The notes under the pieces were generated by a model, which did no database searches, was not told where the DNA came from, and saw nothing but the letters and a program-made list of their open reading frames with translations. Shown piece after piece: positions 1 to 63,759 of a stretch of 64,000 nucleotides of DNA. Position 1 is the first letter of the stretch; every line of letters starts with the position of its first letter. Made by a program: the position numbers and the translations under genes. Source of the stretch: an uncultured Verrucomicrobia subdivision 3 bacterium (GTDB taxonomy: Bacteria > Verrucomicrobiota > Verrucomicrobiia > Limisphaerales > UBA11358). The DNA is taken from contig CAIPKV010000070.1 in the NCBI GenBank assembly GCA_903865745.1, positions 1 through 64,000 on the forward strand, read 5' to 3'.

Positions 1-9
1 ACGCCAGCG

Positions 10-32
10 GGGACGGCGCGGCGCACCGTCCC
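10..32. repeat. REP-like palindrome, copy 1
   Basis: A 23-nt near-perfect palindrome with outer arms GGGACGG/CCGTCCC. It is preceded by CGCCAGCGG and followed by TACC. Copies with the same context lie at 5912-5934 and 6011-6033. It touches the stop codon of the transposase remnant at 32-139, the arrangement expected of a REP element beside its RAYT. Confidence 0.7.
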
Positions 33-139
33 TACCACTTTAGCCGCTGGCCGTCGGCAAAATAGATGAACGGCCAGTCTTCCGGGCGCGCCACGAGCTT
101 TTTTCGCACGGGATTCTCCATAATGTAGGTGGCCTTCGC
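32..139 (-). pseudogene. 3' remnant of a REP-associated (RAYT, Y1/IS200-like) transposase
   Basis: The reverse strand encodes 35 residues ending in a stop, including YIMENPVRKKLVARPEDWPF. The pattern Y-I-x-E-N-P-V-R-x-x-L-V-x-x-x-E-D-W-P is the C-terminal signature of REP-associated tyrosine transposases. The reading frame begins abruptly at about 139, where a dispersed repeat (139-242) starts, so the catalytic HUH and tyrosine part is missing. The end could be intact and the body deleted by the repeat. It is too short for any activity. The family call rests on this one motif only. Confidence 0.65.
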
Positions 140-242
140 TTTCCCAAGTAGTTATTATCTGCGTTAATCGGCGTAATCGGCGGGCAAAGGTCTTCCCGTC
201 TTTGTTTCCAAAATCGTCAATCGTATATCGTCAATCGCAAAT
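139..242. repeat. Dispersed repeat, partial copy (family with 814, 1361 and 2103)
   Basis: Contains TTCCCAAGTAGTTATTATCTGCG, then GGCGTAATCGGCGGGCAAAGGTCTTCC and the short word AATCGTCAATCGTATATCGTCAATCG. The same order of blocks occurs in the copy at 2103-2354. It interrupts the transposase remnant. Confidence 0.75.
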
Positions 243-321
243 GCCCCACCCCTGTCCTCAGCGGAACACCATCTTTACAGGTGACATTTGCACCGTCGGG
301 GTTATTGTGGTTACGTTGATT

Positions 322-507
322 ATGAGCGCGAAAGAAACTCTCCTCGAGATCGCAGAAAAATTACCGCCCGACGCCACGTTGGTTGACGCCATCTACGAAT
401 TGGAGTTCCGGCAGGCCGTGGCCGAAGGGCTGGCCGAACTGGATCGCGGTGAAGGCATCCCCATTGAACAAGTCAAAGCCCAGATTGCCACATGGGCTGG
501 CAAGTAA
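322..507 (+). CDS. Small antitoxin of a ParE/RelE-type pair
   Basis: A 61-residue acidic, helical protein starting MSAKETLLEIAEKLPPDATL. An in-frame upstream extension exists, but its sequence is repeat-derived, so the ATG at 322 is preferred. The stop codon lies inside the start of the next gene (16-nt overlap), the usual translationally coupled antitoxin-toxin order. By family knowledge such a protein binds and neutralises the downstream ParE/RelE toxin and represses the operon. I see no clear DNA-binding motif; the assignment rests on size, acidity and the partner. Confidence 0.75.
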   Translation: MSAKETLLEIAEKLPPDATLVDAIYELEFRQAVAEGLAELDRGEGIPIEQVKAQIATWAGK

Positions 508-800
508 TCATCGCCCCGTCCGCGCAATTAGATTTGGCCGACATCGTCCGCTACATTGCCCGCCGAAATTCCGATGCCGCCGCCCGCCTTGGCTACGAAT
601 TAATCACCCGAACCGAGCGTCTGGCCGACTTCCCTGAAATGGGACGCAATGTGCCTGAATTCCGACAGCCACACTTACGCGAAATAATTTGCCGTTCCTA
701 TCGGATTATCTACCGGCTGAGACCGGACGTGAAACAAGTGCAAATTGTCCGGTTCTGGCATGGGGCACGGGGATTCCCGCACATTCCAACCCTAGTTTAA
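492..800 (+). CDS. ParE/RelE-superfamily toxin
   Basis: 102 residues with the fold signature of the RelE/ParE superfamily: N-terminal strand WQVIIAPSAQLDLADIVRYI, a helix pair ending in ERLADFPEMGRNVPEF, and the C-terminal strands REIICRSYRIIYRL and QVQIVRFWHGAR. By family it is either a ribosome-dependent mRNA endonuclease (RelE) or a gyrase poison (ParE); the spacing and the C-terminal RFWHGAR favour the ParE-like branch, but this cannot be settled by eye. It overlaps its antitoxin by 16 nt. Full length for the family, no disruption. Confidence 0.85.
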   Translation: MGWQVIIAPSAQLDLADIVRYIARRNSDAAARLGYELITRTERLADFPEMGRNVPEFRQPHLREIICRSYRIIYRLRPDVKQVQIVRFWHGARGFPHIPTLV

Positions 801-813
801 ACTGTAAGTACCG

Positions 814-1003
814 AATCAGCCGATCAAGGCTTTGCCCGCAGATTACGCAGACCTGCCGCGCCGAGCGCGAGCACGGCGGGTGAAACGCCGATTATCCCGG
901 CAGGAGTTTCCCAAGTAGTTTTTATCTGCGGAATCCGCGAAATCTGCGGGCAAAGGTCTTCCTCGCTTTGTTACCCAAATCGAATATCGCAAATCGTAAA
1001 TTG
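814..1003. repeat. Dispersed repeat copy A plus short word
   Basis: 814-962 matches the copies at 1361-1560 and 2103-2354 almost base for base: AATCAGCCGATCAAGGCTTT, a CCTGCC...GGCAGG dyad around GCGAGCACGGCGGGTGAAAC, then TTCCCAAGTAGTTTTTATCT and GCGGGCAAAGGTCTTCC. 978-1003 is a short tandem word (ATCGAATATCGCAAATCG). It fills the spacer between two toxin-antitoxin loci. Confidence 0.8.
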
Positions 1004-1015
1004 CCCACCGAAGAC

Positions 1016-1255
1016 TCAGTGGGTCTCGGTCTTGAGGCGGTCGGCGAGCCAGTGTTTGATGAGCGCCTGCCGGGCAATGCCGTATCGTCCGGCCACCAGA
1101 TCCAGTTGCCGAATCATCCAGACGGGAATGTCCACATTCACGCGGTTCTTGACGTGGCCCGGCCGTGTGGCCCGGCGGGCATCAAAATAGTCCGACACAT
1201 CCTCGCCGGCGTCGAATTTCGCCTCCAGGTTTTTAGCCGTTGTTTTGGTCTTCAC
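1016..1255 (-). CDS. brnA: BrnA-family antitoxin, orphaned
   Basis: 79 residues, GTG start. The central block KFDAGEDVSDYFDARRATRPG followed by RVNVDIPVWMIRQLDLVAGRYGIARQALIKHWLADRLK is the ribbon-helix-helix (CopG/MetJ-like) region of BrnA antitoxins. The family dimer neutralises BrnT and autorepresses. The genetic partner should lie just upstream on this strand, but only the first 16 codons of brnT remain (1252-1302), and its stop TGA overlaps this gene's GTG. The antitoxin therefore appears to persist without its cognate toxin, perhaps as an anti-addiction gene or a free repressor. Confidence 0.8.
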   Translation of the reverse strand: MKTKTTAKNLEAKFDAGEDVSDYFDARRATRPGHVKNRVNVDIPVWMIRQLDLVAGRYGIARQALIKHWLADRLKTETH

Positions 1256-1302
1256 TTGGCTTGATTGCTCTGGCTTTTGGCCGGGTCAAATTCAAAATCC
1301 AT
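1252..1302 (-). pseudogene. brnT: brnT toxin remnant (first 16 codons)
   Basis: The reverse strand from 1302 reads MDFEFDPAKSQSNQAK then TGA. F-E-F-D-P-x-K-S-x-x-N-x-x-K is the canonical N-terminus of BrnT ribonuclease toxins, which normally continues HG-I-D-F-x-E-A for about 70 more residues. Here the frame runs straight into the brnA start (AAGTGAAG: the TGA and GTG share bases). The likely history is a clean internal deletion removing the toxin body while keeping its start region and translational coupling to brnA. Call based on motif recognition. Confidence 0.7.
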
Positions 1303-1360
1303 CAACGGTATAAAAATAGCACCCGCCCGTCCGGATTCAAAACGAAATCGAATTACAATT

Positions 1361-1560
1361 GCGGCAGGACTTAAACGCAATGTCGCCAAGCGGCAGAGGT
1401 GCAGGAGCGACCCGAATCAGCCGATCAAGGCTTTGCCTGCAGATTGCGCAGACCTGCCGCGCCGAGCGCGAGCACGGCGGGTGAAACGCCGATTTTCCCG
1501 GCAGGAGTTTCCCAAGTAGTTTTTATCTGCGGAATCCGCGAAATCTGCGGGCAACGCTTC
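1361..1560. repeat. Dispersed repeat copy B
   Basis: Starts GCGGCAGGACTTAAACGCAA and TGTCGCCAAGCGGCAGAGG, shared with copy C at 2103, then the full block seen in copy A, ending ATCTGCGGGCAACGCTTC. About 200 bp, with internal inverted segments (CCTGCC/GGCAGG). Located between the brnA remnant locus and hicA. Confidence 0.8.
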
Positions 1561-1571
1561 TTGCTATCGGA

Positions 1572-1811
1572 CTAGGACTGCTCAAAGGCCCGCAGAAAAT
1601 CTTCACGGCTGATGCTGGATTGCCGGCAAATGAGCCGCAGCGTGGATGACTTGATCCGGGCATGGTTGGGCATGGTCAGCGGCGTACGGGAGCCATCCGG
1701 ATTTTGCCGGAGCATGGAAATGTGTTCACGTTCTCGAACCATCTCAAAACCCAGCGATCGCAAGGTGGAAACTATTTTGGACTTGGGCGCATCTACGGGA
1801 AATTTAGGCAT
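1572..1811 (-). CDS. hicA: HicA-family mRNA interferase toxin
   Basis: 79 residues with the double-stranded-RNA-binding-like HicA fold: MPKFPVDAPKSKIVSTLRSLGF, then REREHISMLR carrying the catalytic histidine, then TMPNHARIKSSTLRLICRQSSISREDF. HicA cleaves mRNA and tmRNA when HicB is depleted. It follows hicB with 2 nt between them on the reverse strand, the hicB-hicA order found in part of the family. Slightly longer than the shortest HicA proteins but complete. Confidence 0.9.
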   Translation of the reverse strand: MPKFPVDAPKSKIVSTLRSLGFEMVREREHISMLRQNPDGSRTPLTMPNHARIKSSTLRLICRQSSISREDFLRAFEQS

Positions 1812-1813
1812 GA

Positions 1814-2023: not shown

Positions 2024-2102
2024 TGGCTCAATATGACCTGCTAACACCAGTCACGCAAGTGAAGGTTGTTTAACCCCGCTAGCTTAATTTATGATATGCG
2101 GT

Positions 2103-2413: not shown

Positions 2414-2707
2414 CGTCGCTTCGGATGCGACAACCGAAGCTTCGAATGCGACATCCGAGAGTCCGTTTGTCGCACTCGAAGGTCCGTATGCGACACTCGA
2501 AGGTCCGTATGCGACACTCGAAGGTCCGTATGCGACACTCGAAGGTCCGTATGCGACACTCGAAGGTCCGTATGCGACACTCGAAGGTCCGTATGCGACA
2601 CTCGAGAAGCCGAATGCGACGATCGAGAGGCCGTTTATCGCAACCGAAGGTCCATATGCGACAACCGAAGGTTCGTTTGTCATACTCGAAGGTCCGAATG
2701 TGGCAAT
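2414..2707. repeat. 21-bp tandem array, 14 units
   Basis: Fourteen contiguous 21-bp units with no spacers. Six consecutive units (2477-2602) are identical, each CGAAGGTCCGTATGCGACAC plus T; units become divergent towards both ends but keep 21-bp phase and a core of CGAxxxxCCGxxTGxGxCAxx. The period is a multiple of three, so several frames stay open on both strands (heptapeptides such as GPYATLE or SHTDLRV); these are treated as a by-product. No promoter or start supports translation. Confidence 0.95.
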
Positions 2708-2739
2708 CGGCCCTTCCTTTTTAGCGGTGGACGGGCAGG

Positions 2740-4342: not shown

Positions 4343-5839
4343 TCATTGATCCGGCGGGCCGAGCAAGGTATGGAGGCCGTGCGGAAATTGCGGGGATTCC
4401 AGCCAGTCGCCCAGCAGATGTAGTTCCAACGCGGTGAAGCCGAGGGTGGAGACGCGCTTGAAAGTGAGCTGTGCCGGGCCGGTCTGGAGCCCGAGCGTGG
4501 TGGTGGCCCCGAGGGATGGCTCAAGATTTTTTAGCCAGTGGGTGGCGGCGGCAGCGGCGGGCAACTGGGACTGATGGAATACGACCCGGAACAACTGGAG
4601 AATAAAAAAGTCATCGTCCATGCGGGTACCCGTCTGCTCGGTATCATAATAAACGAGATTCGGTAGATGCAGGATAAACTGAATCACTTCGGTTGGAGCC
4701 GGATGGGGATTGCCCTCCAGGTAAGGAATCAAACCACCAAACACGAAATCTTGCCGGTTAACGGTGACGGCCTTGAGAAACGGGTCAATAATGAAACAAT
4801 CATGCCACGCGAGCGTGGCGGCATTGGTCAGCCAGACAAAATTGCCCTGGCCATTAGTAGCGAGCCAAGGATTACCCGCCGTCACAAGGCGTTCGGCCAG
4901 GGATCGAACCTGATTACTGGCCCCCGGCAGTGGCGCGGCAAAATAGGTGACGAACGGGCCGCCGTTCTGCACTTGCGCCCATTCAAAAAACTGGTCGGGT
5001 GGGTTGGTCAAGTGGAGGTCTTGGCAGAAGGGCAAGGTGGCCAGCCAGCCCGCGATGCCGCGCACGGCGGTAAAAGAAGTCAGCGGCTGATGGATATAAT
5101 TGGTGGGAATATCCCAAGGCGACGGCGGCAGCGCCAAGGGTTGGGCGAAATCGAGGGTGGCACGGGTGAGGACGTTGCCGGCGTCGCCAGCGGCGGTCAG
5201 GTGGATTTGAGAAAGTGACGAGTGATGAGTGATGAGTGATGAGAAAGCGGGGTCAATCGCGGCCAGGCTGGACGGGGTGAAATCGACTTCGAGCCAATTT
5301 GAAAGAGATGCGCGATGCGGGATGCGGGCGGCGAAATCGGCCGGCGTACCCGGATGGTTGCCAAGGCCAAGACCGATGAGGGTCCAATCGCGGGAATGGG
5401 AGATTTCGGCAGCGGGCAGTGCGGCTGTTAGATTCGTCTGCCAGAGAAGGGTGCGGGCGGCGGGGAGGCGGATCGCCAAAAGAAGGGTTGAGGGTTGAGG
5501 GTTGAGGGTTGAGTTGGCAGGGCCAGAAATCTCCAGATAGAATTCGTTGGTGACCAAATCATCTAGCAGGGGACGGAGCAGGGCGGCGGTGTTCGTATTG
5601 CCGGGGGCGGGCAGGCGGGCAAGCTTGGTCAGGGTTTGATTCACAAGCGCCGTGGTCTCGGACATTTTCCATATGTTCAGGAAATGCGCGGCGTTGGTAT
5701 CGGGGCTGATCTGCTTAAGGCCCAGCCAATGTAATCGAACCACAGGGTTGGTCGCCGGAGCGGCCAACAGCGGCACGACTTGGCCGGTGAAACTCAGCCA
5801 GCCGAGCAGGGCAATCAAACTGACGCGACGAAAATTCAT
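4343..5839 (-). CDS. Exported protein of unknown function, paralog of the protein at 6041-7672
   Basis: 498 residues with an N-terminal signal peptide (MNFRRVSLIALLGWLSFTGQ, cleavage near VPLLAA). Not recognised by function. It shares its layout with the downstream-coordinate paralog: an RPLLDDL motif near residue 90, DDDFF/ILQLF versus related segments, and a C-terminal GPAxLxFxRxSTLGxTAxELxxLxDWLESPQFP. Two tandem words are built in frame into the coding sequence: 5485-5516 (encoding STLNPQPSTLL) and 5215-5243 (encoding SSLITHHSSLS). Both paralogs are read in the same direction and are separated by about 200 bp of REP-like sequence, so they may be one transcription unit. Confidence 0.8.
   Translation of the reverse strand: MNFRRVSLIALLGWLSFTGQVVPLLAAPATNPVVRLHWLGLKQISPDTNAAHFLNIWKMSETTALVNQTLTKLARLPAPGNTNTAALLRPLLDDLVTNEFYLEISGPANSTLNPQPSTLLLAIRLPAARTLLWQTNLTAALPAAEISHSRDWTLIGLGLGNHPGTPADFAARIPHRASLSNWLEVDFTPSSLAAIDPAFSSLITHHSSLSQIHLTAAGDAGNVLTRATLDFAQPLALPPSPWDIPTNYIHQPLTSFTAVRGIAGWLATLPFCQDLHLTNPPDQFFEWAQVQNGGPFVTYFAAPLPGASNQVRSLAERLVTAGNPWLATNGQGNFVWLTNAATLAWHDCFIIDPFLKAVTVNRQDFVFGGLIPYLEGNPHPAPTEVIQFILHLPNLVYYDTEQTGTRMDDDFFILQLFRVVFHQSQLPAAAAATHWLKNLEPSLGATTTLGLQTGPAQLTFKRVSTLGFTALELHLLGDWLESPQFPHGLHTLLGPPDQ
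5215..5243. repeat. In-gene tandem word GAGTGATGAGTGAT
   Basis: Tandem (GAGTGAT)n word inside the exported-protein gene, translated as SSLITHHSSLS. The same kind of word in another version (CGTCACT) is in prmC at 37060. Confidence 0.8.
5485..5516. repeat. In-gene tandem word GGGTTGA
   Basis: Four units of GGGTTGA, in frame, translated on the reverse strand as STLNPQPSTL. Confidence 0.85.
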
Positions 5840-6040: not shown

Positions 6041-7672
6041 CTACCAGTTGCGACCGGGGAATTGCGGCGACTCCAGCCAGTCGGCGAGGAATTGCAGTTC
6101 GGTGGCGGTCAGGCCGAGGGTGGAACGCCGATAAAAACTGAGTTCCGCCGGGCCGGTGCGTTTGACGATGGTAGCCGCTGTGCCGAGCCGGGGGGCGATC
6201 GTGGTCAACCAAGTCAGGCTGGCGGCGGTCGGGGCCATTTGCGGCTGATGCGCGAGCAGGCAGGCGGTCTGACTAATCTGGAAGCAGGCGGGCAGGCGCG
6301 GCCCGGTGACTTCCCAGCCATAATAAACCAGATTCGTGCGGCGCAGAATATCTTGAATCATGCCCGCCGGCGGCGGACTGGCCGTCGCCGTCCGGTCATC
6401 CGGGAATAAGCCGGCGAAGAGCCAGCCCGCACCGGGGTCACCCGCACCTTTGATGAAGGGCCGGATATCCGGCTGATTGCCCCACGTGACGCCATTGCCA
6501 TCGGGCGCGCGATCAAAGCCGACGTAACCGTGGGCGGCCAGCCAGGGATTGCTGGTCTGAAGCAGCCAATCGGTCAGGGTGGCCACCGACCGGCTGGTCT
6601 CGGGCAAGGGAGCGGCGAAATAAGCCTGATAAGGACTATCAGCGAGCGACCAGAAAAAACCTTGGTCGGGCGGCGTGCCTAAGGGCAAAGCTTGCCAGAC
6701 CGGCCAGGCGGCCAGCCAGGGTTGCAGGCCGCGCACCGCGTTAAAACTGGTCAGCGGTTCGTGCAACAGGTCGCTGGGCAATTGCCAGGGCGTCAGGGCG
6801 GCGAGCGGTTGGGCCAGGGTGACTTGGCCGCGCGTGATGACATTGCCACCATCGCCGGTCAAAGCTAAGCCAACATGGGAAATGGCAGATAGCAGATGGA
6901 AGATGGCGGATGGATTATCCACCTCACCCCGACCCGCTCCCCCCGTCCGACGGGCGGAGCGGGAGAAGGTATTGACGAGGCGGGCGGGCGAAAGGTCTGC
7001 TTCCAGCCAGAGGTTGGTGCCGGCCGAAACAAAGGGAACGCCCTCGCGCTGGATGCGGGCGGTGATTTCGGCGGCCAAAGCATTGGGCTCCGGACCGGCA
7101 CTCACCACGGTCCAGTCACTGACCCGGGTAAGCGTAAGGCGATCCGTTGAATTAGTTGGCTGCAGCGTCCAGCCATGCTTGGCTGGGTCGGCGGTAGCGG
7201 GGCGGCCGGTTAGTAGTTGGACGGCTACGGCCAGATTGGTTTCCCAAAGACCGGCGCGGTGGACGTCAACGTGGACAGCGAGAGCTAATGCAGGCGAAGC
7301 ATTGGTGGCGGCCCGCACTTCGACATACGCCTCGGTCTGCGCGAGATCATCCAGCAACGGCCGCAGCACGGCGGCGGGAATCTGCGCCGCCGCGGCGTCG
7401 CCAAGCAATACCCGCCAGGTGCCGGTGGCGAGCCGGTCAAAGGTTTGCGTCTGCAGCCGGGTGGTTTCCGGCAGCGACCAGATCCGGCTGAAAAAGTAGG
7501 CGTCCGCCTGCAGATCCAGCCGGCGTTTACCCACCCAATGAACCGAGGCGAGGGTATCCGGCGAGAGGACCGTGGGCGAAGTGGTGACGGGAGCGGCGGG
7601 CCGCTGGCAACCGGTGACCGCCGCGCAAAAGAGGGCGACGAACAGGGTGAACAAGGCCAGACGAGGTTGCAT
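6041..7672 (-). CDS. Lipoprotein of unknown function, paralog of the protein at 4343-5839
   Basis: 543 residues. Signal peptide with lipobox LFCAAVTGC, so Cys22 is the likely lipidated residue and the protein is probably an outer-membrane or periplasmic lipoprotein. The body shares motifs with its neighbour (RPLLDDLAQTEAYVEV, AVRGLQPWLA, GPAELSFYRRSTLGLTATEL, FLADWLESPQFPG). Function unknown. Two repeat words are built in frame: 6877-6915 (translated SAIFHLLSAISH) and 6921-6970, a palindromic word translated RRTGGAGRGEVD. These occupy a region that is shorter in the paralog, consistent with late insertion. Confidence 0.8.
   Translation of the reverse strand: MQPRLALFTLFVALFCAAVTGCQRPAAPVTTSPTVLSPDTLASVHWVGKRRLDLQADAYFFSRIWSLPETTRLQTQTFDRLATGTWRVLLGDAAAAQIPAAVLRPLLDDLAQTEAYVEVRAATNASPALALAVHVDVHRAGLWETNLAVAVQLLTGRPATADPAKHGWTLQPTNSTDRLTLTRVSDWTVVSAGPEPNALAAEITARIQREGVPFVSAGTNLWLEADLSPARLVNTFSRSARRTGGAGRGEVDNPSAIFHLLSAISHVGLALTGDGGNVITRGQVTLAQPLAALTPWQLPSDLLHEPLTSFNAVRGLQPWLAAWPVWQALPLGTPPDQGFFWSLADSPYQAYFAAPLPETSRSVATLTDWLLQTSNPWLAAHGYVGFDRAPDGNGVTWGNQPDIRPFIKGAGDPGAGWLFAGLFPDDRTATASPPPAGMIQDILRRTNLVYYGWEVTGPRLPACFQISQTACLLAHQPQMAPTAASLTWLTTIAPRLGTAATIVKRTGPAELSFYRRSTLGLTATELQFLADWLESPQFPGRNW
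6877..6970. repeat. Two adjacent in-gene words
   Basis: GGCAGATAGCAGATGGAAGA then a palindrome GCTCCCCCCGTCCGACGGGCGGAGC (arms GCTCC/GGAGC and CCCGTC/GACGGG) preceded by CCTCACCCCGACCC. The palindromic type recurs at 23630-23660, where an IS element is inserted. Confidence 0.8.
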
Positions 7673-14782: not shown

Positions 14783-14813
14783 GGCGGCTTTCAGAAATGG
14801 AAGCCGCTTTTTT
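14783..14813 (+). terminator. Rho-independent terminator
   Basis: GGCGGCTTTC-AGAAAT-GGAAGCCGC followed by TTTTTT; it sits between convergent genes and ends the nucleotidyltransferase transcript. Confidence 0.85.
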
Positions 14814-16416
14814 ATGCAATCATCAGCCACACGGTCTTCAAATACGCCGGTTCGTCGCGACTGATGGGGAAATCCGGTGGCTGCGGGACATAGTGTCGTT
14901 TCACACTCTTCCGCCGCGCGCCGCGCACGGCCGCTTCAATGATCGCGAGAAATTCTTCCGGCGGCCAGTCCGCCGCATTCGTCGAGGCGAGCAGCACGCC
15001 GCCCGGCTTCAGCACCCCCAGTGCGGCGGTGACGAGCTGGCCGTAATCTTTCTCCGCGCGGAACGTGCCGTGTTCCTTGGATTGCGAAAAGGTCGGCGGG
15101 TCGAGCACTACGGCATCGAACGCGCGGCCTTTCTTCGCCAGCCGCCGCAGCCAGTCAAAGGTGTCGCCGTAAATGAAATCGTGCGCCGCCGGGTTGAGGC
15201 CGTTGAGCGCGAAGTTGCGTTTGCCCCACTCGAGATATTTTTTAGAGAGGTCGAGGCTGGTGGTCGCCATGCCCGCCTTGGCGGCGCACACGGAGAAACC
15301 GCAGGTGTAGGCAAAGCAATTCAGGATTTCCGCTTTCCGATTTGTGATTTCCGATTTGAATAACGGAAAGTCGGCGGCGACGTGGCCGGTCAGCAGGCGG
15401 CGACGGTTGTCGCGCTGATCAAGGAACAGGCCGACGGAATAACCTTCGTTGAAACTCAGTTCGTAGCGGACGCCGTTCTCTCGAATCTCAAAACGCTCCG
15501 GGGCGGCTTCGCCCAAAACCAATTGCGGCGAGGCTTGAGCGGTCGGGGTGCGCCGGACTTGGCGCGAAAGGGTTTTATGATACGCACCGCGTGACTTGAA
15601 AGCCAAGACGAGACGTGACAACTCTTCGGTCTGCTTGGCGCTCAAGGGTGCTTCCGATTGCGAAAGCAAGAAGTCGCCCAGTTTTTCCACAAACCAACCC
15701 GGCCAACCGTCGCTCGCACCGTGTATCACGCGAAAGGCGTTGGTCGCTTCTGGCTCGATGACCGCCATGCGCAGGGCGAGCCGCGGCTCGTTATTAAAAT
15801 CCGCTGGCACAACAAACTTCTCCGGCTGGCCAGTGGCCGGGTGTTTGAATTCAATTTCTGCTCCGTGTAAATAGACCCGCAACGAAGCGGTGCCACCGTA
15901 AAGCGTGTCGCCAAGAATCGGAAAGCCGCTCTCGGCGGCGTGGACGCGAATCTGGTGTGTGCGGCCGGTTAGTGGTGAGGCGCGGACAGTTTTGAGTTTT
16001 AAGTTTTGAATCTTGAACTCGGCTTCAGCGACGGGCGTGAAGACAGTCTCGGCCATTTCGCCACCTGGACCAATGGCATATTTCTCGCCGACACGGACGA
16101 GCGGAGTCTTTACCGCAAACACTTTCTTTGGCACGGGGCGGTCGGTGAGCAGGAGATATTGCTTGTGGACTTGGCGGGCGGTGAACTGGTCGGTGAGCGA
16201 TTTGTTCGCTAGCGGCGTTTTACCAAAGACGAGAAGGCCGCTGGTTTCCTTATCGAGCCGGTGAAGGATGGCGAGCGATGACCAGCGCGGTTCGCGGTGT
16301 TTCAGCCAGTCGTAGATGCCTTCCCCAGCGTGCGGGGCTGGCGCATGGGTGTTCCAGCCGGCGGGCTTGTGAACCACCAGCAGATGCTCATCTTCGAAAA
16401 GGATGCATGGCGTCAT
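14812..16416 (-). CDS. Fusion of RluA-family pseudouridine synthase and RlmI-like rRNA methyltransferase
   Basis: 534 residues in one uninterrupted frame. Residues 1-210 are a RluA-type pseudouridine synthase: HRLDKETSG with catalytic Asp55 and LTGRTHQIRVH near 150. Residues 220-534 are a class I SAM methyltransferase of the RlmI/YccW type: GLFLDQRDNRRRL, NCFAYTCGFSVCAAKAG, and the catalytic-region motif VVLDPPTFSQSKEHG at 436-450. The two halves probably modify the same or nearby rRNA sites, which is inference. Two repeat words are inserted in frame: residues 132-143 (FKIQNLKLKT) and 352-364 (FKSEITNRKAEIL), each just before a conserved motif. Confidence 0.88.
   Translation of the reverse strand: MTPCILFEDEHLLVVHKPAGWNTHAPAPHAGEGIYDWLKHREPRWSSLAILHRLDKETSGLLVFGKTPLANKSLTDQFTARQVHKQYLLLTDRPVPKKVFAVKTPLVRVGEKYAIGPGGEMAETVFTPVAEAEFKIQNLKLKTVRASPLTGRTHQIRVHAAESGFPILGDTLYGGTASLRVYLHGAEIEFKHPATGQPEKFVVPADFNNEPRLALRMAVIEPEATNAFRVIHGASDGWPGWFVEKLGDFLLSQSEAPLSAKQTEELSRLVLAFKSRGAYHKTLSRQVRRTPTAQASPQLVLGEAAPERFEIRENGVRYELSFNEGYSVGLFLDQRDNRRRLLTGHVAADFPLFKSEITNRKAEILNCFAYTCGFSVCAAKAGMATTSLDLSKKYLEWGKRNFALNGLNPAAHDFIYGDTFDWLRRLAKKGRAFDAVVLDPPTFSQSKEHGTFRAEKDYGQLVTAALGVLKPGGVLLASTNAADWPPEEFLAIIEAAVRGARRKSVKRHYVPQPPDFPISRDEPAYLKTVWLMIA
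15325..15360. repeat. In-gene word (GATTTCC/TCCGATT type)
   Basis: GGATTTCCGCTTTCCGATTT followed by GTGATTTCCGATTTG. Translated KSEITNRKAEI. Same family as 29115-29149. Confidence 0.85.
15989..16022. repeat. In-gene word (GTTTTGAATCTTGAA type)
   Basis: AGTTTTGAGTTTTAAGTTTT then GAATCTTGAACTC. Translated EFKIQNLKLKT in the pseudouridine synthase domain. Confidence 0.8.
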
Positions 16417-16845: not shown

Positions 16846-16911
16846 GGGGACAATTTACGATTTACGATTTACGATTTACGAGCCTTAAATCAAAGGGCGC
16901 TGGAATGGAAT

Positions 16912-25964: not shown

Positions 25965-26738
25965 TCAACGCTCCGCAATTTCCCGCACGACGTAACCCGC
26001 CGCCGCGAAACCGAACGCACCCGTCACGAACGTCGCCGAGCCGAGACCGCCGTTGCAGTTCAGCCGCGCGCCGTCCTCCGCCGCCGAGCGCATTTCGCAC
26101 ACCGTGCCGTCCGCCTGCGGATACACCGTGCGCTCCACCGAATACACGCACGGCACACCCATCGCCGCTTGCCCAGCGGGAAACCCGTGGTCCTGACGCA
26201 GCCGCCGCCGCACTTCCGCCAGCAGCTTGTCATGGCTGGCTTGCGACAAATCGCCGAGGCGCACCGACGTCAGCTCGTGGCGCCCGCCCGCACCGCCACA
26301 GGCGATGACCGGCAGCTTCTGCTCATGGCAGCGCACAAGCAGCAGCAGCTTGTTCGTCACGTCATCAATCGCATCGAGGATAAAATCAAACTTCGGCACA
26401 AGCAGTTCCGCCGCCGTTTGTTCATTGAAAAACTTTTGTTCCACCGTCACGCGACAATCGGGATTGATGGCGCGAATACGTTCGGCCATCACGGCGACCT
26501 TCGCGCGGCCAACGGTTTCGGTAAGCGCGTGCGACTGACGGTTGATGTTCGTGATACAGACCTCATCCAAATCCACAAGCGTGATGGCACCGACGCCTGA
26601 GCGCGCCAAGGCTTCCGCCGCCCAGGTGCCAACGCCGCCGATACCGACGACGCCCACGTGCGCCGCACGCAGCTTCTCCAGGCCGGCTTTGCCGTAGAGC
26701 CTAGCAATGCCACCAAATCTCGTTTCAAAATCATCCAT
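25965..26738 (-). CDS. tcdA: tRNA threonylcarbamoyladenosine dehydratase (TcdA/CsdL), ThiF family
   Basis: 257 residues from MDDFETRFGGIARLYGKAGL; an upstream in-frame start at 26819 would add a repeat-derived stretch (IILPSSFIIP) and is rejected. E1-like ATP-binding loop GIGGVGTWAAEALARSGVGA, then LVDLDEVCITNINRQ, DAIDDVTNKLLLL and CGGAGGRHELTSVRLGDLSQ. It makes the cyclic form of t6A in tRNA. tsaB and tsaE, which make t6A, are 6 kb away in the same window. Confidence 0.88.
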   Translation of the reverse strand: MDDFETRFGGIARLYGKAGLEKLRAAHVGVVGIGGVGTWAAEALARSGVGAITLVDLDEVCITNINRQSHALTETVGRAKVAVMAERIRAINPDCRVTVEQKFFNEQTAAELLVPKFDFILDAIDDVTNKLLLLVRCHEQKLPVIACGGAGGRHELTSVRLGDLSQASHDKLLAEVRRRLRQDHGFPAGQAAMGVPCVYSVERTVYPQADGTVCEMRSAAEDGARLNCNGGLGSATFVTGAFGFAAAGYVVREIAER

Positions 26739-26744
26739 GCGAAG

Positions 26745-26845
26745 AGGAATTATGAAGGATGAAGGCAGAATGATGAAGTGCAAATCAAGGCGTGCGTCGC
26801 TTCCGACTTCTGCATTCATAATTCACACTTCATAATTCCCACACC
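26745..26845. repeat. Paired repeat words between tcdA and the DUF155-like gene
   Basis: AATTATGAAGGATGAAGGCA at one side and TTCTGCATTCATAATTCACA, CTTCATAATTCC at the other; the outer parts are inverted with respect to each other. Confidence 0.7.
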
Positions 26846-27984: not shown

Positions 27985-28028
27985 TCGGCGTTTCATCCGC
28001 CGAATCTGGTTCACCAGTCGTCGCCGGG

Positions 28029-28409
28029 AGTGCAATACCAGCTCTGGAAGGTGTGAAACTAGCTCCGGATGATGCAAAACCAACGGTTGGGGGTGCAAAA
28101 GTAACGGCTACTGCTTAATAAGTAGTGACTACTGCGCATGAAGTAGCGACAACTTCTCATGCAGTAACGACTACTTCTTACGCGGTAGCGGCTACTTCGT
28201 AATAAGTAACGGCTACTTCTCATGCAACAGCCGCAACTTCGCATGCAGTAGCGGCTACTTCTTAACCAACTGCCGCTACTTATTAAGAAGTTGCCGCTAC
28301 TTTTTCACCCCTTTTCGTCGAAAACGAACCTTTTTTGCCAAATAACGACGTTTTTGCCGTCCCAAACCACCTTTTTGGCGTCCGGAAGCGTTTAATTGGT
28401 TTTAAAACC
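28029..28409. repeat. Composite 21-bp tandem array, three sub-families
   Basis: 28099-28308 holds ten 21-bp units of the type AAGTAGCGGCTACTTCTCATG, each with an odd palindrome AAGTAGC-G-GCTACTT; changes on one arm are sometimes matched on the other (AAGTAGT-G-ACTACTT at 28120). 28029-28098 holds older units with the same period (for example GGTGTGAAACTAGCTCCGGA). 28326-28409 holds four more 21-bp units of a third type (GACGTTTTTGCCGTCCCAAA). The spacer lies between two convergent genes. Confidence 0.88.
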
Positions 28410-28433: not shown

Positions 28434-30527
<2,094 letters not shown>

Positions 30528-30609
30528 CGCGGGCAATCTGCCCCAAAAGCTGCGCCGTCGCGAACAATTTTGCGTCGTCACCCACGCGCGGCTGCGCTAG
30601 GCTGGCATC

Positions 30610-31326: not shown

Positions 31327-32255
31327 AGGAATTCGAACTTATCGCGCACCTGACTAAATCGCTGCCAACGAATGAAAACGTGGTAGTTGGCGCGGGCGAT
31401 GACTGCGCCGTACTGGACTTGGGCATACGGGAGAAACTAGTCTTGTTCAAGACGGATGCCGTGGTGGAAGGTATCCATTTCACGCGCGAGACACCGCCGG
31501 AAAAAATCGGGCACAAGGCGCTGGCGCGCTGCCTGAGCGACATCGCGGCGATGGCCGGAACACCGACGGCGGCACTCGTGACCATCGCCCTGCCGAAAGA
31601 TTTTGACGCGGAGTTTGTCAGGAAGATTTACACGGGCTTGAACGCGCTGGCGGAAAGGCATGGCGTTGCCATTGTCGGCGGCGAGACAACCACGAATCCC
31701 GAACGCATTTTGATTTCTATTGCGCTGCTTGGCACCGTACCACGCCGAAAACAAATTCTGCGGGGCGGCGCAAGCGTCGGCGACGCGATTTTCGTGACCG
31801 GCGAACTGGGCGGCTCGCTGGCAGATAAACATTTAAGTTTTGAGCCGCGTCTGGCTGAGGCGCGCTGGCTCGCGGAACATTTTCACTTGCACGCGCTGAT
31901 GGATTTGAGCGACGGCCTGGCTGGTGATTTACGCCACATCCTAAACGCGAGCAAAGTCGGCGCAGAGATTTTAAAATCAGCGGTGCCAGTCTCGCGCGCG
32001 GCCAAAGTGCGGGCAAAGGAAAATTCTGCCGCTAAGCCAGCGTTCGTAGCGGCCCTAACGGACGGTGAGGATTTTGAACTGCTTTTCACCATCGCCAGCA
32101 AGGAAGCGGTGAAACTGCTGGACGCCTGCAAGAAACAGTTTCCAAAACTAAAATTAAGCTGCATTGGAAAGATTGTTGCTGGCGACGGCATATTAATTCG
32201 CGACAAATATGGCGCGCATAAATTTAACGGACATGGCTACGTTCATTTCACATAA
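31323..32255 (+). CDS. thiL: Thiamine-monophosphate kinase
   Basis: 310 residues. ATG at 31323 overlaps the preceding stop. Typical ThiL blocks: VVGAGDDCAVLDLG, FKTDAVVEGIHFTRETPPEKIGHKAL (metal and TMP binding), SDIAAMAGTPTAALV, AIVGGETTTNPERI, DLSDGLAGDLRHIL and TDGEDFELLFTI. It phosphorylates TMP to the cofactor TPP. The second gene of a four-gene overlapping operon; its last 23 nt overlap tsaE. Confidence 0.95.
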   Translation: MKEFELIAHLTKSLPTNENVVVGAGDDCAVLDLGIREKLVLFKTDAVVEGIHFTRETPPEKIGHKALARCLSDIAAMAGTPTAALVTIALPKDFDAEFVRKIYTGLNALAERHGVAIVGGETTTNPERILISIALLGTVPRRKQILRGGASVGDAIFVTGELGGSLADKHLSFEPRLAEARWLAEHFHLHALMDLSDGLAGDLRHILNASKVGAEILKSAVPVSRAAKVRAKENSAAKPAFVAALTDGEDFELLFTIASKEAVKLLDACKKQFPKLKLSCIGKIVAGDGILIRDKYGAHKFNGHGYVHFT

Positions 32256-32664
32256 CCCGGCGGACACCGAAGCGCTTGGCGAAAAGTTTGGGCGCGCGGC
32301 ACGGTGCGGTTGGGTCATCGCCTTAAGCGGCGACTTGGGCGCGGGCAAGACACAGTTCGTTCGCGGACTGGCGCGGGGACTGGAATTTCCCGGTCGCGTG
32401 CATTCGCCAACATTTACGCTCGTGAATGAATACGCTGGCGGGAGGCTGAAACTGTTTCATCTCGATTTGTACCGGTTGGAAACGGGGGCGCAACTCGTGA
32501 GCGCGGGAATTGAGGAGTTTTTCTCGCCGGACGGCGTGGCCGTGATTGAATGGGTGGAGAGAATTTACGATTCGCGATTTACGATTCACGATATGAAGCA
32601 GGTGCAAATTGAGATTGTGAGCGAGACGGAACGGAAAATTATTTATGACGATTCTGGCATTTGA
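32233..32664 (+). CDS. tsaE: tRNA t6A synthesis ATPase TsaE
   Basis: 143 residues; start at 32233 (MATFISHNPADTEALGEKFG) chosen because it matches the family N-terminus. Walker A GDLGAGKT at 33-40, then RVHSPTFTLVNEY, FHLDLYRLE and VAVIEWVER. It drives the TsaB-TsaD-TsaE cycle of t6A formation. A repeat word is inserted in frame right after VIEWVER (residues 110-121, IYDSRFTIHDMK), where most TsaE proteins go directly to the last strand. Overlaps thiL by 23 nt and tsaB by 20 nt. Confidence 0.92.
   Translation: MATFISHNPADTEALGEKFGRAARCGWVIALSGDLGAGKTQFVRGLARGLEFPGRVHSPTFTLVNEYAGGRLKLFHLDLYRLETGAQLVSAGIEEFFSPDGVAVIEWVERIYDSRFTIHDMKQVQIEIVSETERKIIYDDSGI
32561..32594. repeat. In-gene word (ATTTACGATTCGCG type)
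   Basis: GAATTTACGATTCGCGATTT then ACGATTCACGATAT; related to the intergenic word at 16855-16883. Translated IYDSRFTIHD. Confidence 0.85.
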
Positions 32665-36736: not shown

Positions 36737-37588
36737 ATGACCGTCCTCGAAGCGATTCAGAAGAGTACCGAGTTTCTCACTAAAAAAGGGGTTGAGTCGC
36801 CGCGCTTACAAACGGAACTCCTCCTCGCGCATCTGCTCAAGCTGCCGCGCATGAAATTGTATCTGAATTTCGAACGCGCGCTTTCACCAACCGAAACCAA
36901 CGCCTTACGCGAGTTCGTCAAACGTCGCGGCCAGCGCGAACCGCTCCAGCACATTACCGGCTCCACGTCATTTTGTGGTCATGAGATTGCCGTCAGCCGC
37001 CACGCACTCATCCCGCGCCCGGAAACCGAACTCCTCGCCGAACTCGGCTGGAAGTTTCTCGTCACTCGTCACTCGTCACTCGTCACTGCTTTGGATTTCG
37101 GCACCGGTACCGGCTGCATCGCCATTGCCATTGCGGCAAAATGCCCGGAGGCCAAAATCACTGCACTCGACATATCCTCCGAAACGCTGGCCTTGGCGAA
37201 ACTAAACGCCTTGCAAAACCAAGTCGCAGAGCAAATTGATTTTTTGTTGGGTAATGGTTTTGGTGCGCTGACGGCAGGAACACAATTCGATTTGATTGTG
37301 AGCAATCCGCCCTACATCGCCTCGGCCGAAATTGAGACGCTGGAGCCAGAGGTGAAAGATTTTGATCCGCGCGGCGCGCTGGATGGCGGCGCGGACGGAC
37401 TGGTCTTTTATCGGCGGCTGGCAGCGGAGGCCAAACCCTACCTGAAAGCGGACGGCAAAATCATGCTGGAATTCGGCGACGGCCAAGCGGACGCCATAAA
37501 AAGGATTTTTGAAAATGAAAAGTGGATTGTCGAAGCCGTGCAGGACGATTACAGTCAGCGCGCCCGAATTTTAATCGCTCACAAATAA
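36737..37588 (+). CDS. prmC: Release factor glutamine N5-methyltransferase
   Basis: 283 residues. N-terminal helical domain (LLAHLLKLPRMKLYLNFERA, REPLQHITGSTSFCGHEIAV), ALIPRPETELL, SAM loop LDFGTGTGCIAIAIA and catalytic SNPPYIASAE with NPPY at 190-193. It methylates the GGQ glutamine of RF1 and RF2. A tandem word at 37060-37088 adds LVTRHSSLVT (residues 108-117) just before the SAM-binding loop. murA begins 6 nt downstream. Confidence 0.95.
   Translation: MTVLEAIQKSTEFLTKKGVESPRLQTELLLAHLLKLPRMKLYLNFERALSPTETNALREFVKRRGQREPLQHITGSTSFCGHEIAVSRHALIPRPETELLAELGWKFLVTRHSSLVTALDFGTGTGCIAIAIAAKCPEAKITALDISSETLALAKLNALQNQVAEQIDFLLGNGFGALTAGTQFDLIVSNPPYIASAEIETLEPEVKDFDPRGALDGGADGLVFYRRLAAEAKPYLKADGKIMLEFGDGQADAIKRIFENEKWIVEAVQDDYSQRARILIAHK
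37060..37088. repeat. In-gene tandem word CGTCACT
   Basis: Four units of CGTCACT in frame; translated VTRHSSLVT. Confidence 0.88.
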
Positions 37589-61634: not shown

Positions 61635-62252
61635 TCAAGTGCTCATGTGCTGGACCGGCTCGCACCACGGGCCGGTCAGATTCTTCGCCACCATCGTACG
61701 AGCGCGCAGCGAATGCATGGAACCGGAGGGCAACTCATCCAAAACGACATTGTCCGGGTCGGTGAAGGTGCTGTATTTGACCGTTCCACCGGGCAGCAAC
61801 GTATCTTCAACCACATAACACCAGGCGGCGGGGTCGTGTTGCAATTCCAGACCTAGCCGGCTGGGACCGAGATTGGTGACGCTGATAATGGCGGTAAGTC
61901 CGGGCACGCTGCCAGTGCGGGTATCGCTGGCCAGCTTGAAACCATACGCTGGCACGATAGCCGGATTGTTAGCGGCGTTGGCCGCGTTCACGACGTCGTT
62001 GCAAAGTGTATCAAACAGCGCAATCAGTTCCTCGCGGATGGCTATTTTGTTGAGGGTATCTTCCTTCGTGCCATTTTCGCAGACGGCGACGATATCCAAT
62101 AGCGCCTGCGCCTTGGCCTTCAAAATCAACGCCGTGACCGTGGTGGTGATGGCGTAAGTGCTCTTGGCGATGAGGGCGGCGCCGCTCAAGCCGTGTTCGC
62201 CTAGGTCGGTGTCGGACAGTTTATGATATTCGTGCAGGGCTTTGATGCTCAT
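61635..62252 (-). CDS. Helical-bundle plus fibronectin-type-III-like protein, paralog 2
   Basis: 205 residues, paralogous to the protein at 3405: VCENGTKEDTLNKIAIREEL versus VCKDGTRQDTILEQQLKVAL, AANNPAIVPAYGFKLASDT versus NSNNDPVIMASSGFPLASL, and a FN3-like C-terminus (GLELQHDPAAWCYVVEDTLL, PGGTVKYSTFTDPDNVVLDE, GSMHSLRARTMVAKNLTGPW). No signal peptide. Function unknown. Its 5' end faces a hairpin and 20-bp array 120 bp away. Confidence 0.75.
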   Translation of the reverse strand: MSIKALHEYHKLSDTDLGEHGLSGAALIAKSTYAITTTVTALILKAKAQALLDIVAVCENGTKEDTLNKIAIREELIALFDTLCNDVVNAANAANNPAIVPAYGFKLASDTRTGSVPGLTAIISVTNLGPSRLGLELQHDPAAWCYVVEDTLLPGGTVKYSTFTDPDNVVLDELPSGSMHSLRARTMVAKNLTGPWCEPVQHMST

Positions 62253-62369
62253 GTTGGCTAGATGGAGTTGAATGTTTTAGCCGTCCAGCACGCCCCCCTG
62301 GCTACACTTACGACCTTTGACCAAACTGAAGTTAACAGAACGCGCCAGCATAGCAATGGGGCGGATACG

Positions 62370-62410
62370 ATTCGCATCTGGCTAATAGTATGTATTAGCC
62401 AGACGCGAAT
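62370..62410. repeat. 18-bp-stem hairpin at the array edge
   Basis: ATTCGCaTCTGGCTAATA (62370-62387), loop GTATG, then TATTAGCCAGAcGCGAAT (62393-62410): 17 of 18 pairs match. It ends at the base before the first unit of the 20-bp array. No T-run follows, so it is not a terminator. Confidence 0.85.
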
Positions 62411-62670
62411 GGACGGCAAAGTCGCGTGGCCGACGGCGAAGTCATTTTGCCGACGGCAAAGCTACTTTGCGGACGGCAAAACTCCTAAGCGGTTCGCCAG
62501 CACCGGTTCGCGTTGTCGAAAACTGCTGCGCCGTTTGGGAAATGACTTTGCCGTCGGCAGCGTCATTTCCCCGACGGCAAAACGCCAACCGAATCCGGGA
62601 ATGCGACTTCGCCGACGGCGGAGCAGGTTTGCCGACGGCGAAAAGCCTCTGCCAAGCCGTTTATGGCCGG
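62411..62670. repeat. 20-bp tandem array, 13 units
   Basis: Units start at 62411 and every 20 bp after, each with a GACGGC(A/G)AA-type start: GGACGGCAAAGTCGCGTGGC, CGACGGCGAAGTCATTTTGC, CGACGGCAAAGCTACTTTGC and later divergent units. The common core TTTGCCGACGGCAAA is an odd palindrome. Between convergent-facing genes; no spacers, so not CRISPR. Confidence 0.88.
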
Positions 62671-62747
62671 CGAAACGGGGAAAACGTTGGCGGGGCGGGA
62701 ACTTTGTAATGGACAACCGGCGGCGGCGAAATTAGAAAGACTGCCTA

Positions 62748-63671
62748 CTACTCTTCAAAGTAATCACCATCGATTCGCTTGATTTCGTAGGAGTGAGCTG
62801 GTGCTACACCAATGTTGTGTTCAATCATCAAGTCAGCGAGCCGACTTCCATCGATAAGAATGACCTTTTGCGAAATACTTTTGGCGTAAGCCTTCGCCGT
62901 CTCAGCAAAGTCACTGGTCGTAATAAAAATCCCCTTCTGCGCCTGTTTTCCAGCAAGTGCACCTACGAAACTTTGAATGTCAGGTCGACCAACTGTCGTG
63001 TCACTCCATTTTTTAGCTTGAACATAAATCACATCCAAACCAAGACGGTCTTCATTGATCACACCATCAATGCCTTCGTCGTTTGAAGCTTTAGTAACAC
63101 GCGCGGCTTCTTCACGAGAACCGCCGTAGCCCATTGCTACCAACAAATCCAAGACGAGTTGTTCAAAACGAAACGCATCCATCTTCTTTACGATACCCAG
63201 CAGTTCGCTTTTGAGACTGCTCTGGAGTGTCCCATACGCTGCTTCAATAATTTCTTCGGGAGTTTTTGAATCTGCCTCTTTGCCTGCGGCCACTTCGTTG
63301 TCTTGGTTTTGATTTTTCGTTTTACCTTTAGCCTCCGCAAATTCTACAAAGCTTGGGAACTTCATTAAGTATTCACGGTCAATCATTGTCGGCTTTTCAG
63401 TCGCAACTTTTTTTCCAAGCTCGGTGATTACATAGAGACCTTTCTTCGGACGGTCCAGAAGCCCAGCGCGAAACAAATCATAACAAGCCCAGTTAGCGCG
63501 GTTATGCCACCGGCGTTGTGTCCCGCTTGGCAACATTTCATTTTGTTCGGCTTCAGTTAATTTGAAGTGAACAGCAAGTGTCGTAAAAACTTCAGCAAGA
63601 CGATGCGGCTTACCATCCGAGAAGAACTGCATTGCCGGCGCTTTGATTTCGTTAAATTCAGGAACTGGCAT
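62748..63671 (-). CDS. mrr: Mrr-type restriction endonuclease
   Basis: 307 residues. N-terminal winged-helix Mrr_N (FSDGKPHRLAEVFTTLAVHF, RRWHNRANWACYDLFRAGLL, KGLYVITELGKKV) and a C-terminal PD-(D/E)xK domain: FEQLVLDLLVAMGYGG, NDEGIDGVINEDRLGLDVIY with the aspartate, and VQAKKW with the Q-x-K lysine. It cuts modified or invading DNA. No methylase gene is adjacent, as expected for a type IV enzyme. A+T-richer codon use than the neighbours suggests acquisition. Confidence 0.92.
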   Translation of the reverse strand: MPVPEFNEIKAPAMQFFSDGKPHRLAEVFTTLAVHFKLTEAEQNEMLPSGTQRRWHNRANWACYDLFRAGLLDRPKKGLYVITELGKKVATEKPTMIDREYLMKFPSFVEFAEAKGKTKNQNQDNEVAAGKEADSKTPEEIIEAAYGTLQSSLKSELLGIVKKMDAFRFEQLVLDLLVAMGYGGSREEAARVTKASNDEGIDGVINEDRLGLDVIYVQAKKWSDTTVGRPDIQSFVGALAGKQAQKGIFITTSDFAETAKAYAKSISQKVILIDGSRLADLMIEHNIGVAPAHSYEIKRIDGDYFEE

Positions 63672-63698
63672 AATTCTTCACGGCTTGTTTTTACTTTG

Positions 63699-63759
63699 TT
63701 ACTCCCACTCGATCGTGCCGGGGGGGCTTGCTGGTGATGTCGAGGACGCAGCGGTTCAT
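63699..63759 (-). pseudogene. guaA: Displaced guaA 3' end (GMP synthase C-terminus)
   Basis: The reverse strand reads MNRCVLDITSKPP, then after one extra C in a run of seven, GTIEWE and a TAA stop. (I/V)NR-x-x-(Y)D-(V/I)-(T/S)-x-KPP-x-TIEWE is the conserved end of GMP synthase. Only about 20 codons are present; hicA occupies the position where the body should be, and the fragment starts at hicA's stop codon. The guaA 3' end is a known integration site of genomic islands. Confidence 0.72.

What the first reader, a model, noticed from the sequence alone, without database searches (positions are those of the whole stretch)
1..63700. Lexicon of short tandem words, both intergenic and in frame inside conserved genes
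A small set of words of about 30-50 bp, each built from a 7-12-bp unit, recurs through the window. Inside genes they add characteristic peptides: STLNPQPSTL (5485-5516), SSLITHHSSLS (5215-5243), SAIFHLLSAISH (6877-6915), KSEITNRKAEI (15325-15360), FKIQNLKLKT (15989-16022), [10 protein letters not shown] (29115-29149), IYDSRFTIHD (32561-32594, tsaE) and VTRHSSLVT (37060-37088, prmC). The same units occur between genes (16855-16883, 213-242, 978-1003, 26745-26845). All the in-gene cases keep the frame and sit just before or after a conserved motif, where the loop is tolerant. That looks like an active, selected insertion process with a limited vocabulary rather than ordinary microsatellite slippage. 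I recognise the style from Verrucomicrobiota but do not know a named element family.
Basis: partly seen in the sequence, partly recalled or inferred. Interest (0 to 1): 0.85.

Follow-up and report, generated by a model that had tools for sequence, protein, structure and literature searches.

The report
Seven-base repeat words rewriting gene linkers
Short runs of about four copies of a seven-base unit sit in flexible linkers of this bacterium's genes, and related species carry different seven-base units in the very same linkers, which points to a mutation process that rewrites these spots rather than to a known mobile element.

Summary
The unit is almost always exactly 7 bp and the words are about 30 bp (four units plus 1-3 bases), far above chance. 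The same units recur at unrelated places within and between genomes of the genus, about 24-53 times more often than random heptamers of that composition. One word, (ATTTACG)n, occurs in several phyla.

Orthologs change the interpretation. In prmC, tsaE and a pseudouridine-synthase/methyltransferase gene, congeners carry different but internally uniform heptamer words in the same linker; lag-7 self-match beats cross-species match at all three sites (0 of 2000 permutations each). At three sites array-less orthologs have equal slot lengths, so the words overwrite existing linkers; at the DUF255 gene they are a net 21-33 bp gain. Sister species can hold different words between similar flanks. Y1 transposase, reverse transcriptase and MutS loss do not explain it.

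Best reading: a neutral, 7-nt-register template-switching process that homogenises and swaps about four-unit words. Tandem heptamer words are known in bacteria; their turnover inside conserved protein genes looks like a new variant.

The parts
212..237 (.). degenerate heptad array (AATCGTC), outside the listed ORFs
   Evidence: TRF (78% match, score 38); another array with the same unit at 2324-2358
976..1001 (.). degenerate heptad array (CAAATCG), outside the listed ORFs
   Evidence: TRF (73% match, score 31)
5214..5243 (-). word AGTGACG(AGTGATG)3AG on the + strand; read as SSLITHHSSLS in ORF 4343-5839
5484..5513 (-). word (AGGGTTG)4AG; read as STLNPQPSTL in ORF 4343-5839
6878..6914 (-). degenerate heptad/14-mer word; read as SAIFHLLSAISH in ORF 6041-7672, whose product matches the ORF at 4343-5839 at 42% identity
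15325..15357 (-). heptad word in the methyltransferase half of ORF 14812-16416; in the orthologous slot the best period is 7 in 19 of 20 congeners
15988..16022 (-). heptad word (AGTTTTG type) before the TGRTHQIR motif of the pseudouridine synthase; equal in length to the array-less linker of congeners
16853..16881 (.). word (ATTTACG)4A between listed ORFs; identical word at the same site in G028, absent in G034
26746..26839 (.). inverted pair of degenerate heptad arms (potential hairpin), overlapping the start of the ORF listed at 25965-26819
   Evidence: arms 26746-26779 and 26806-26839, 76% complementary
29116..29146 (-). word (ATTTCCG)2(ATTTTCG)2ATT in the DUF255/Thioredox_DsbH gene 28434-30581; (ATTGCCG)4 in G026, (ATTGCGG)4 in G027, absent in six other congeners
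32561..32594 (+). word ATTTACG/ATTCGCG/ATTCACG in tsaE (32209-32664)
37058..37087 (+). word (CTCGTCA)4CT in prmC (36737-37588), just before methyltransferase motif ALDFGTG

Best explanation
The words are patches of about four tandem 7-bp units that arise and are rewritten by a mutational process working in 7-nt steps, most likely polymerase template switching or transient misalignment by one unit, with occasional copying from similar arrays elsewhere in the genome. They persist only where DNA is tolerant: intergenic DNA and flexible protein linkers. Units within an array are homogenised without a change of length, so essential reading frames survive. Whole words are also replaced by other words of the genus's lexicon while the flanks stay put. 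Shown: the strict 7-bp period, the narrow length, the non-random lexicon, concerted units at orthologous slots, slot reuse, equal slot lengths with and without words at three sites, and net gain at one. Inferred: the polymerase-level step, the donor arrays, and neutrality.
For: Period 7 stands alone among short non-triplet periods in this genome. At three orthologous slots a species' units match each other more than another species' units at the same lag: RluA/MTase 0.661 vs 0.446 (19 congeners), prmC 0.674 vs 0.477 (18 slots of 30 bp) and tsaE 0.608 vs 0.396 (22 slots), each 0 of 2000 permutations; lag 14, and lag 21 where tested, behave alike. At prmC, G000 and G028 differ by the same base in all four units with equal length. 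Slot lengths of array and array-less orthologs coincide. prmC: 30 bp in 10 array-bearing and 3 array-less members of the genus. tsaE: 42 or 51 bp in 17 of 19 uncut array orthologs and 5 of 9 array-less ones. Site 15988: 39 bp in 3 array and 9 array-less congeners. Of six sister pairs with support 0.92 or more and tsaE known in both, five differ in their tsaE word or word versus none; in the sixth both lack a word. Same-word species are no more alike in the flanks than different-word species (0.786 vs 0.792 over 150 nt). Exact unit sharing at non-orthologous sites is 12 of 206 pairs within genomes and 40 of 1534 between, against 0.0011 for random heptamers.
Against: Short lag-7 matches (runs of 6-8) are not clearly enriched over neighbouring lags, so there is no general 7-nt copying outside established arrays; birth of an array is unexplained. 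A test that conserved flanking codons seed the unit was negative at both sites tried (1093 and 1463 of 5000 permutations reach the observed value). At DUF255 the word is a net gain, not an overwrite, and one search reports stops inside the DUF255 match of G005, G015, G020 and G026, among others, so that frame is not assured in each. The permutation tests ignore relatedness, and some other lags show small excesses (RluA lag 10: 0.235 vs 0.192, 9 of 2000; lag 17: 17 of 2000; tsaE lag 6: 42 of 2000; in other families lag 8 at the RluA site, 0 of 2000). At the RluA slot two of four sister pairs keep the same word class. No donor array with the same internal variant pattern was identified. The 7-nt step size itself is not explained.
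Confidence: 0.5

Rival explanations
1. Ordinary heptanucleotide slippage: arrays gain and lose units by replication slippage, and purifying selection keeps only in-frame lengths in genes; the different units are just drift.
For: Heptamers are reported as the commonest long simple repeats in most bacterial genomes surveyed (Mrazek et al. 2007, as summarised in PMC4679880). Block patterns such as CCG CCG TCG TCG at 29116 look like neighbour duplication. In other taxa unit number varies widely, up to 166 bp.
Against: Homogenised units with no length change in tsaE and prmC would need paired +7/-7 steps through frameshifted intermediates. The lexicon is shared across loci far beyond random heptamers. 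Of five own arrays outside open frames, where no frame constrains length, three are 28-30 bp (the others 20 and 45).
Confidence: 0.22
2. Gene-segment transfer: allelic recombination between congeners moves stretches of prmC, tsaE and so on, carrying the words along.
For: The same word classes appear in non-sister species at tsaE.
Against: Same-word species are not closer in the flanks (150 nt up: 0.786 vs 0.792; 33 nt down: 0.746 vs 0.756). Sister pairs G017/G003 and G022/G021 keep 0.89 and 0.91 upstream identity with different words.
Confidence: 0.1
3. A mobile word moved by a transposase such as RAYT or IS200-type Y1 enzymes.
For: Shared lexicon. 52 of 59 genomes have a Y1 match, G000 two. 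At DUF255 the word is a net gain. In an Akkermansia-like genome most arrays sit inside a larger dispersed element with recurring edges.
Against: Words are direct repeats, not palindromes, and in this genus show no common flank by eye. G007 has no Y1 match but a perfect 29-bp prmC array; G011 and G016 also have no match. Overwriting at constant length is not transposition.
Confidence: 0.07
4. Templated synthesis by a reverse transcriptase (DRT10/telomerase-like or diversity-generating).
For: DRT10 makes tandem-repeat DNA from an RNA template (PMC12632851, passages read).
Against: No RVT_1 match in 40 of 59 genomes, G000 among them. 31 different unit classes among 45 genus arrays, whereas one RNA template gives one unit.
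Confidence: 0.02

Closest known systems
Heptameric tandem words TAACTGA in Beggiatoaceae, Cyanobacteria and Bacteroidetes (MacGregor 2015, PMC4679880; abstract, passages and section 15 read)
   Same: 7-bp unit, few copies per set, same word in unrelated phyla, some inside ORFs, no mechanism evident
   Different: there essentially one word, mostly just upstream of start codons, in-ORF cases mainly at the periphery of proteins; here a lexicon, internal linkers of conserved genes, and turnover at orthologous sites
GGGAATC heptamer repeats of Xanthomonas and Nostoc (Rehm 2015, PMC4692102; passages and section 10 read)
   Same: 7-bp unit, four units the commonest array, many inverted pairs, long repeats not at the same genes in related species
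   Different: G-quadruplex word, 89-93% intergenic in Xanthomonas; here many words without G-tracts and common in genes
Repeat-motif classes in the P6b stem-loop of the Nostoc trnL intron (PMC4476775, 2015; abstract and passages read; that the motifs are heptanucleotides is recalled)
   Same: one slot, alternative repeat classes, scattered on the tree through repeated independent replacement
   Different: RNA stem-loop and two main classes; here protein-coding slots and many words
Short tandem heptamers (STRR) of the cyanobacterium Calothrix (one sentence seen in PMC4692102; otherwise recalled)
   Same: tandem heptamers repeated in a genome
   Different: orthologous turnover and coding slots not described there as far as I recall
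Rickettsia palindromic elements (recalled; only search listing seen)
   Same: in-frame presence in conserved protein genes
   Different: palindromic insertions of roughly 100 bp or more (recalled); here direct repeats of ~30 bp, often with no net length change

Membership tests
Heptameric tandem repeats of bacteria (STRR/TAACTGA/GGGAATC kind) | tandem unit of exactly 7 bp, few copies | tested here: met
Heptameric tandem repeats of bacteria (STRR/TAACTGA/GGGAATC kind) | same unit dispersed at many unrelated loci | tested here: met
Heptameric tandem repeats of bacteria (STRR/TAACTGA/GGGAATC kind) | mostly intergenic (as reported for TAACTGA and GGGAATC) | tested here: not met
   11 of 16 own arrays lie in open frames of 200 codons or more, which cover 85% of the sample; descriptive in those papers, not a strict criterion of the kind
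Rickettsia palindromic elements | palindromic element inserted in frame (recalled definition) | tested here: not met
   words are direct repeats; prmC and tsaE slots show no net insertion
REP/RAYT or IS200-type elements | palindromic repeat | tested here: not met
   words are direct repeats; some intergenic arrays do form inverted pairs
REP/RAYT or IS200-type elements | Y1 transposase in the genome | tested here: inconclusive
   52 of 59 have a match; array-bearing G007 has none
RT-templated repeats (DRT10, diversity-generating retroelements) | reverse transcriptase present | tested here: not met
   RVT_1 absent in 40 of 59 genomes, G000 included
Mismatch-repair-loss microsatellites | MutS absent | tested here: not met
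   MutS_I present in 48 of 59, G000 included

The most novel reading that the evidence does not exclude
A dedicated or by-product cellular process makes short (~30 nt) heptamer-repeat DNA from a small lexicon and writes it over unconstrained stretches at replication forks, acting as a genome-wide rewriter of protein linkers in several phyla.
Probability: 0.07. Interest if true: 0.9.

Novelty: new variant of a known kind. Interest (0 to 1): 0.62.

Why it matters
Heptamer repeats have been noted in bacteria since at least 2007 without a demonstrated mechanism. Orthologous slots in essential genes give aligned comparisons that show homogenisation and word swapping at constant length, which makes the 7-nt step a testable mutation process rather than a curiosity. 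It also warns that fast-evolving linkers in such genomes can be mutational products, and that peptides such as STLNPQPST need not be functional motifs.

Tried and rejected
Flank seeding: I suspected that conserved flanking codons supply the unit. The test was negative at the RluA/MTase and tsaE slots.

General 7-nt copying: short lag-7 runs are not clearly enriched (own genome, runs of 6: 113 at lag 7 against 71-94 at lags 4, 5, 8, 10, 11 and 13; runs of 7 and 8 show nothing), so I do not claim it.

Fixed word edges: AKNNNYG-type arrays start at the A in 10 of the 12 own arrays that fit the template, and 36+33 of 103 ATTTACG arrays elsewhere start at phase 0 or 6. Congener arrays are less regular (4 of 11 at phase 0), and many copies elsewhere come from a few genomes. 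I keep this as a hint only.

Akkermansia-like bursts: (ATTTACG)3 occurs in 4 of 387 phylum genomes, three of them among 23 sampled species of one other genus, with 14, 143 and 156 matches; the reversed control gave 1 match in one genome. There the array is mostly inside a larger dispersed element, so it is not the same situation as the bare words here.

RAYT, reverse transcriptase and MutS loss were tested and not supported. Rfam finds nothing in the window at gathering scores.

Not followed: the loci of the P0006 family (L268-L297) were fetched but not aligned. No structure was predicted. In one search G002 was wrongly put in a word class and one row was undefined; one search repeats that test correctly. 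One search counted a few nearby inverted pairs and orthologous sites; one search drops them (8 close and 86 orthologous-flank flags, partly overlapping; 1740 of 1830 pairs kept). L244 was left out of the test because its slot holds a longer insertion. tsaE rows L357 and L360 are cut matches and are left out of length counts; one search reports a stop inside 3 of the 30 same-genus tsaE matches that were given loci (G021, G025, G029). The output was cut.
Full report
What was checked. The window lies in a 3.63-Mb, 87-contig genome. Its genus matches MAG records named Verrucomicrobia, two of them 'subdivision 3' (L108, L134; L148 is named only Verrucomicrobia), at 66-78% DNA identity. In the window, period 7 is the only period from 4 to 13 with exact match runs of 12 or more; 14 is its harmonic. 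In 464 kb of the genome there are 17 period-7 arrays at score 12 or more against 1 in a shuffle; 14 of 17 are 26-33 bp long with a mode of 30. At score 13 the density is 34 per Mb here (16 in 464 kb), 62 per Mb in stretches of congeners (45 in 725 kb, partly chosen around the window's orthologs and so biased upward), 25 per Mb in other families of the order (8 in 315 kb) and 10 per Mb in the rest of the phylum sample (3 in 310 kb, where period 9 with 11 arrays is commoner). The other periods that ring are mainly multiples of three, above all 21.

The lexicon is real. ATTTACG twice in a row has 14+18 matches in the genome, its reversed control none. Among 61 arrays of the genus, pairs at non-orthologous, non-adjacent places share the exact unit in 12 of 206 pairs within a genome and 40 of 1534 between genomes, while random heptamers of the same composition do so at 0.0011. 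Within-genome sharing exceeds between-genome sharing (24 of 1000 label shuffles reach it for exact units, 6 of 1000 for one mismatch). Assembly error is therefore an unlikely explanation. The word is nevertheless patchy: 4 of 387 genomes of this phylum have three copies in tandem.

Orthologous slots. A prmC search matched 57 of 59 genomes, own included, some only through related methyltransferases. The slot before the ALDFGTG motif is 30 bp in this genome and holds (CTCGTCA)4. Of 31 members of the genus with a readable slot it is 30 bp in 13: ten with heptad words (this genome and nine others, mostly with other units; lag-7 match 0.65-1.00) and three with no heptad pattern (0.26-0.35). The rest are 21-39 bp (six) or 54-96 bp (twelve, most with palindrome-like inserts). 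In other families of the order it is 30 bp in five of ten; one of these, G037, has a near-perfect word of yet another unit (0.96) and two are weakly periodic (0.61, 0.65). Homologs of known structure have a linker one to three residues shorter with unrelated residues; tsaE homologs likewise have a short unrelated linker. tsaE: of 30 congeneric orthologs, 21 have a lag-7 match of 0.5 or more in the slot. Leaving out two cut matches, 17 of 19 have slots of 42 or 51 bp; five of nine array-less orthologs have those same lengths. The words fall into an ATTNNNG class (42 bp) and a GGAAGAT class (51 bp), besides others (AATGCGG, CATCCAA, AGAAGGC, GGCAGAT).

RluA-type pseudouridine synthase fused to a methyltransferase (Pfam; matches in 59 of 59 genomes, some to paralogs only). 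At 15988 the slot is 39 bp in this genome and two other congeners with heptad words and in nine array-less ones; other congeners have 33, 24 or 9 bp. In G028 and G034 the plain linker reads F.I....LK.V, as the word does here. At 15325 the best period is 7 in 19 of 20 congeners, with lineage-specific units, but in only 3 of 11 genomes of other families; the eight plain linkers there are 48-63 bp against 45-63 in the congeners, one of which has 96. DUF255 protein: words in this genome, G026 and G027 (three different units); four congeners are 33 bp shorter and two 21 bp shorter with no word. So at three slots words and plain linkers share lengths, and at one the word is a net gain. At the methyltransferase slot both kinds vary in length.

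Concerted evolution. If units drifted independently, a species' unit would match its own neighbour no better than another species' neighbouring unit. It matches better at all three slots tested: 0.661 vs 0.446, 0.674 vs 0.477 and 0.608 vs 0.396, each with 0 of 2000 permutations, and also within both tsaE length classes. Lag 14 (and 21 at the methyltransferase site) behave alike. Other lags show at most small excesses (lag 10 at the methyltransferase site 0.235 vs 0.192, 9 of 2000, is the largest in the genus). These permutations do not model relatedness, but the nearly flat neighbouring lags argue against a composition artefact. Because 7 is not a multiple of 3, amino-acid selection is not expected to create a 7-nt period (reasoning).

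Word turnover. On a tree of 47 genomes from three genes with the slots removed, six sister pairs have support of 0.92 or more and tsaE in both: five differ in word, or word versus none, and in the sixth (G032/G012) both lack a word. At the methyltransferase slot two of four such pairs differ in class. Upstream flanks of the five tsaE pairs are 0.83-0.91 identical. Species sharing a tsaE word class are no closer in the flanks than species that do not. Words are therefore swapped without their surroundings.

Mechanism. The data call for a process that works in 7-nt steps, homogenises without length change, and draws on a genome-level lexicon. Template switching or transient misalignment by one unit, plus copying from similar arrays, fits these points. 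MacGregor 2015 reports (passage read) that an earlier survey proposed 7 nt as the stretch interacting with the DNA polymerase; I could not read that survey. Two expectations of a stronger version failed: no clear enrichment of short lag-7 matches and no seeding from conserved flanks. Birth of a new array therefore remains unexplained. Y1 transposases are not found in one array-bearing congener, reverse transcriptases are not found in 40 of 59 genomes, this one included, and MutS is present here.

Comparison with what is known. Tandem heptamer words shared across phyla, with few units and no evident mechanism, are in print for TAACTGA (PMC4679880); four-unit arrays and inverted pairs are in print for GGGAATC (PMC4692102). 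Repeated replacement of one repeat class by another in a single slot is in print for the Nostoc trnL intron (PMC4476775). My searches listed no paper that by title or abstract describes the present case; the library lacks most subscription journals. I therefore call it a new variant of a known kind: the same heptamer phenomenon, now seen rewriting linkers of conserved protein genes at orthologous positions.

Noticed in passing
prmC slot in L043, L046, L062-L069 (congeners): Where the 30-bp prmC slot is longer (54-96 bp) it mostly holds in-frame, G+C-rich, palindrome-like inserts; similar inserts recur at a second prmC loop (around residue 181). They look like Rickettsia-type in-frame palindromic elements in Verrucomicrobiota (by eye).
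   Followed up: partly
window 2425-2700 and 28024-28309: Long arrays with a 21-bp unit (13 copies at 2425; 21/42/84-bp higher-order repeats at 28024), outside the listed ORFs.
   Followed up: no
window 168-189, 830-851, 934-955, 2175-2196, 2280-2301: Dispersed 22-bp inverted repeats of the type TCGGCGTAATCGGCGGGCAAAG.
   Followed up: no
L027 5177-6669 (G000:C85 about 35.2-36.7 kb): Four heptad arrays of three different units inside one open frame of 1476 codons.
   Followed up: no
G163, G063, G127 (loci L218-L237): In an Akkermansia-like genus 3 of 23 sampled species carry bursts of (ATTTACG)n; in G163 mostly inside a larger dispersed element with recurring edges (ggcgcct on the left, cagggaattcgcgcg on the right); the other 20 have no match.
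   Followed up: partly
L067 7648-7715, L093 1215-1301, window 26746-26839: Heptad arrays in inverted pairs that could form hairpins, as reported for Xanthomonas GGGAATC repeats.
   Followed up: partly
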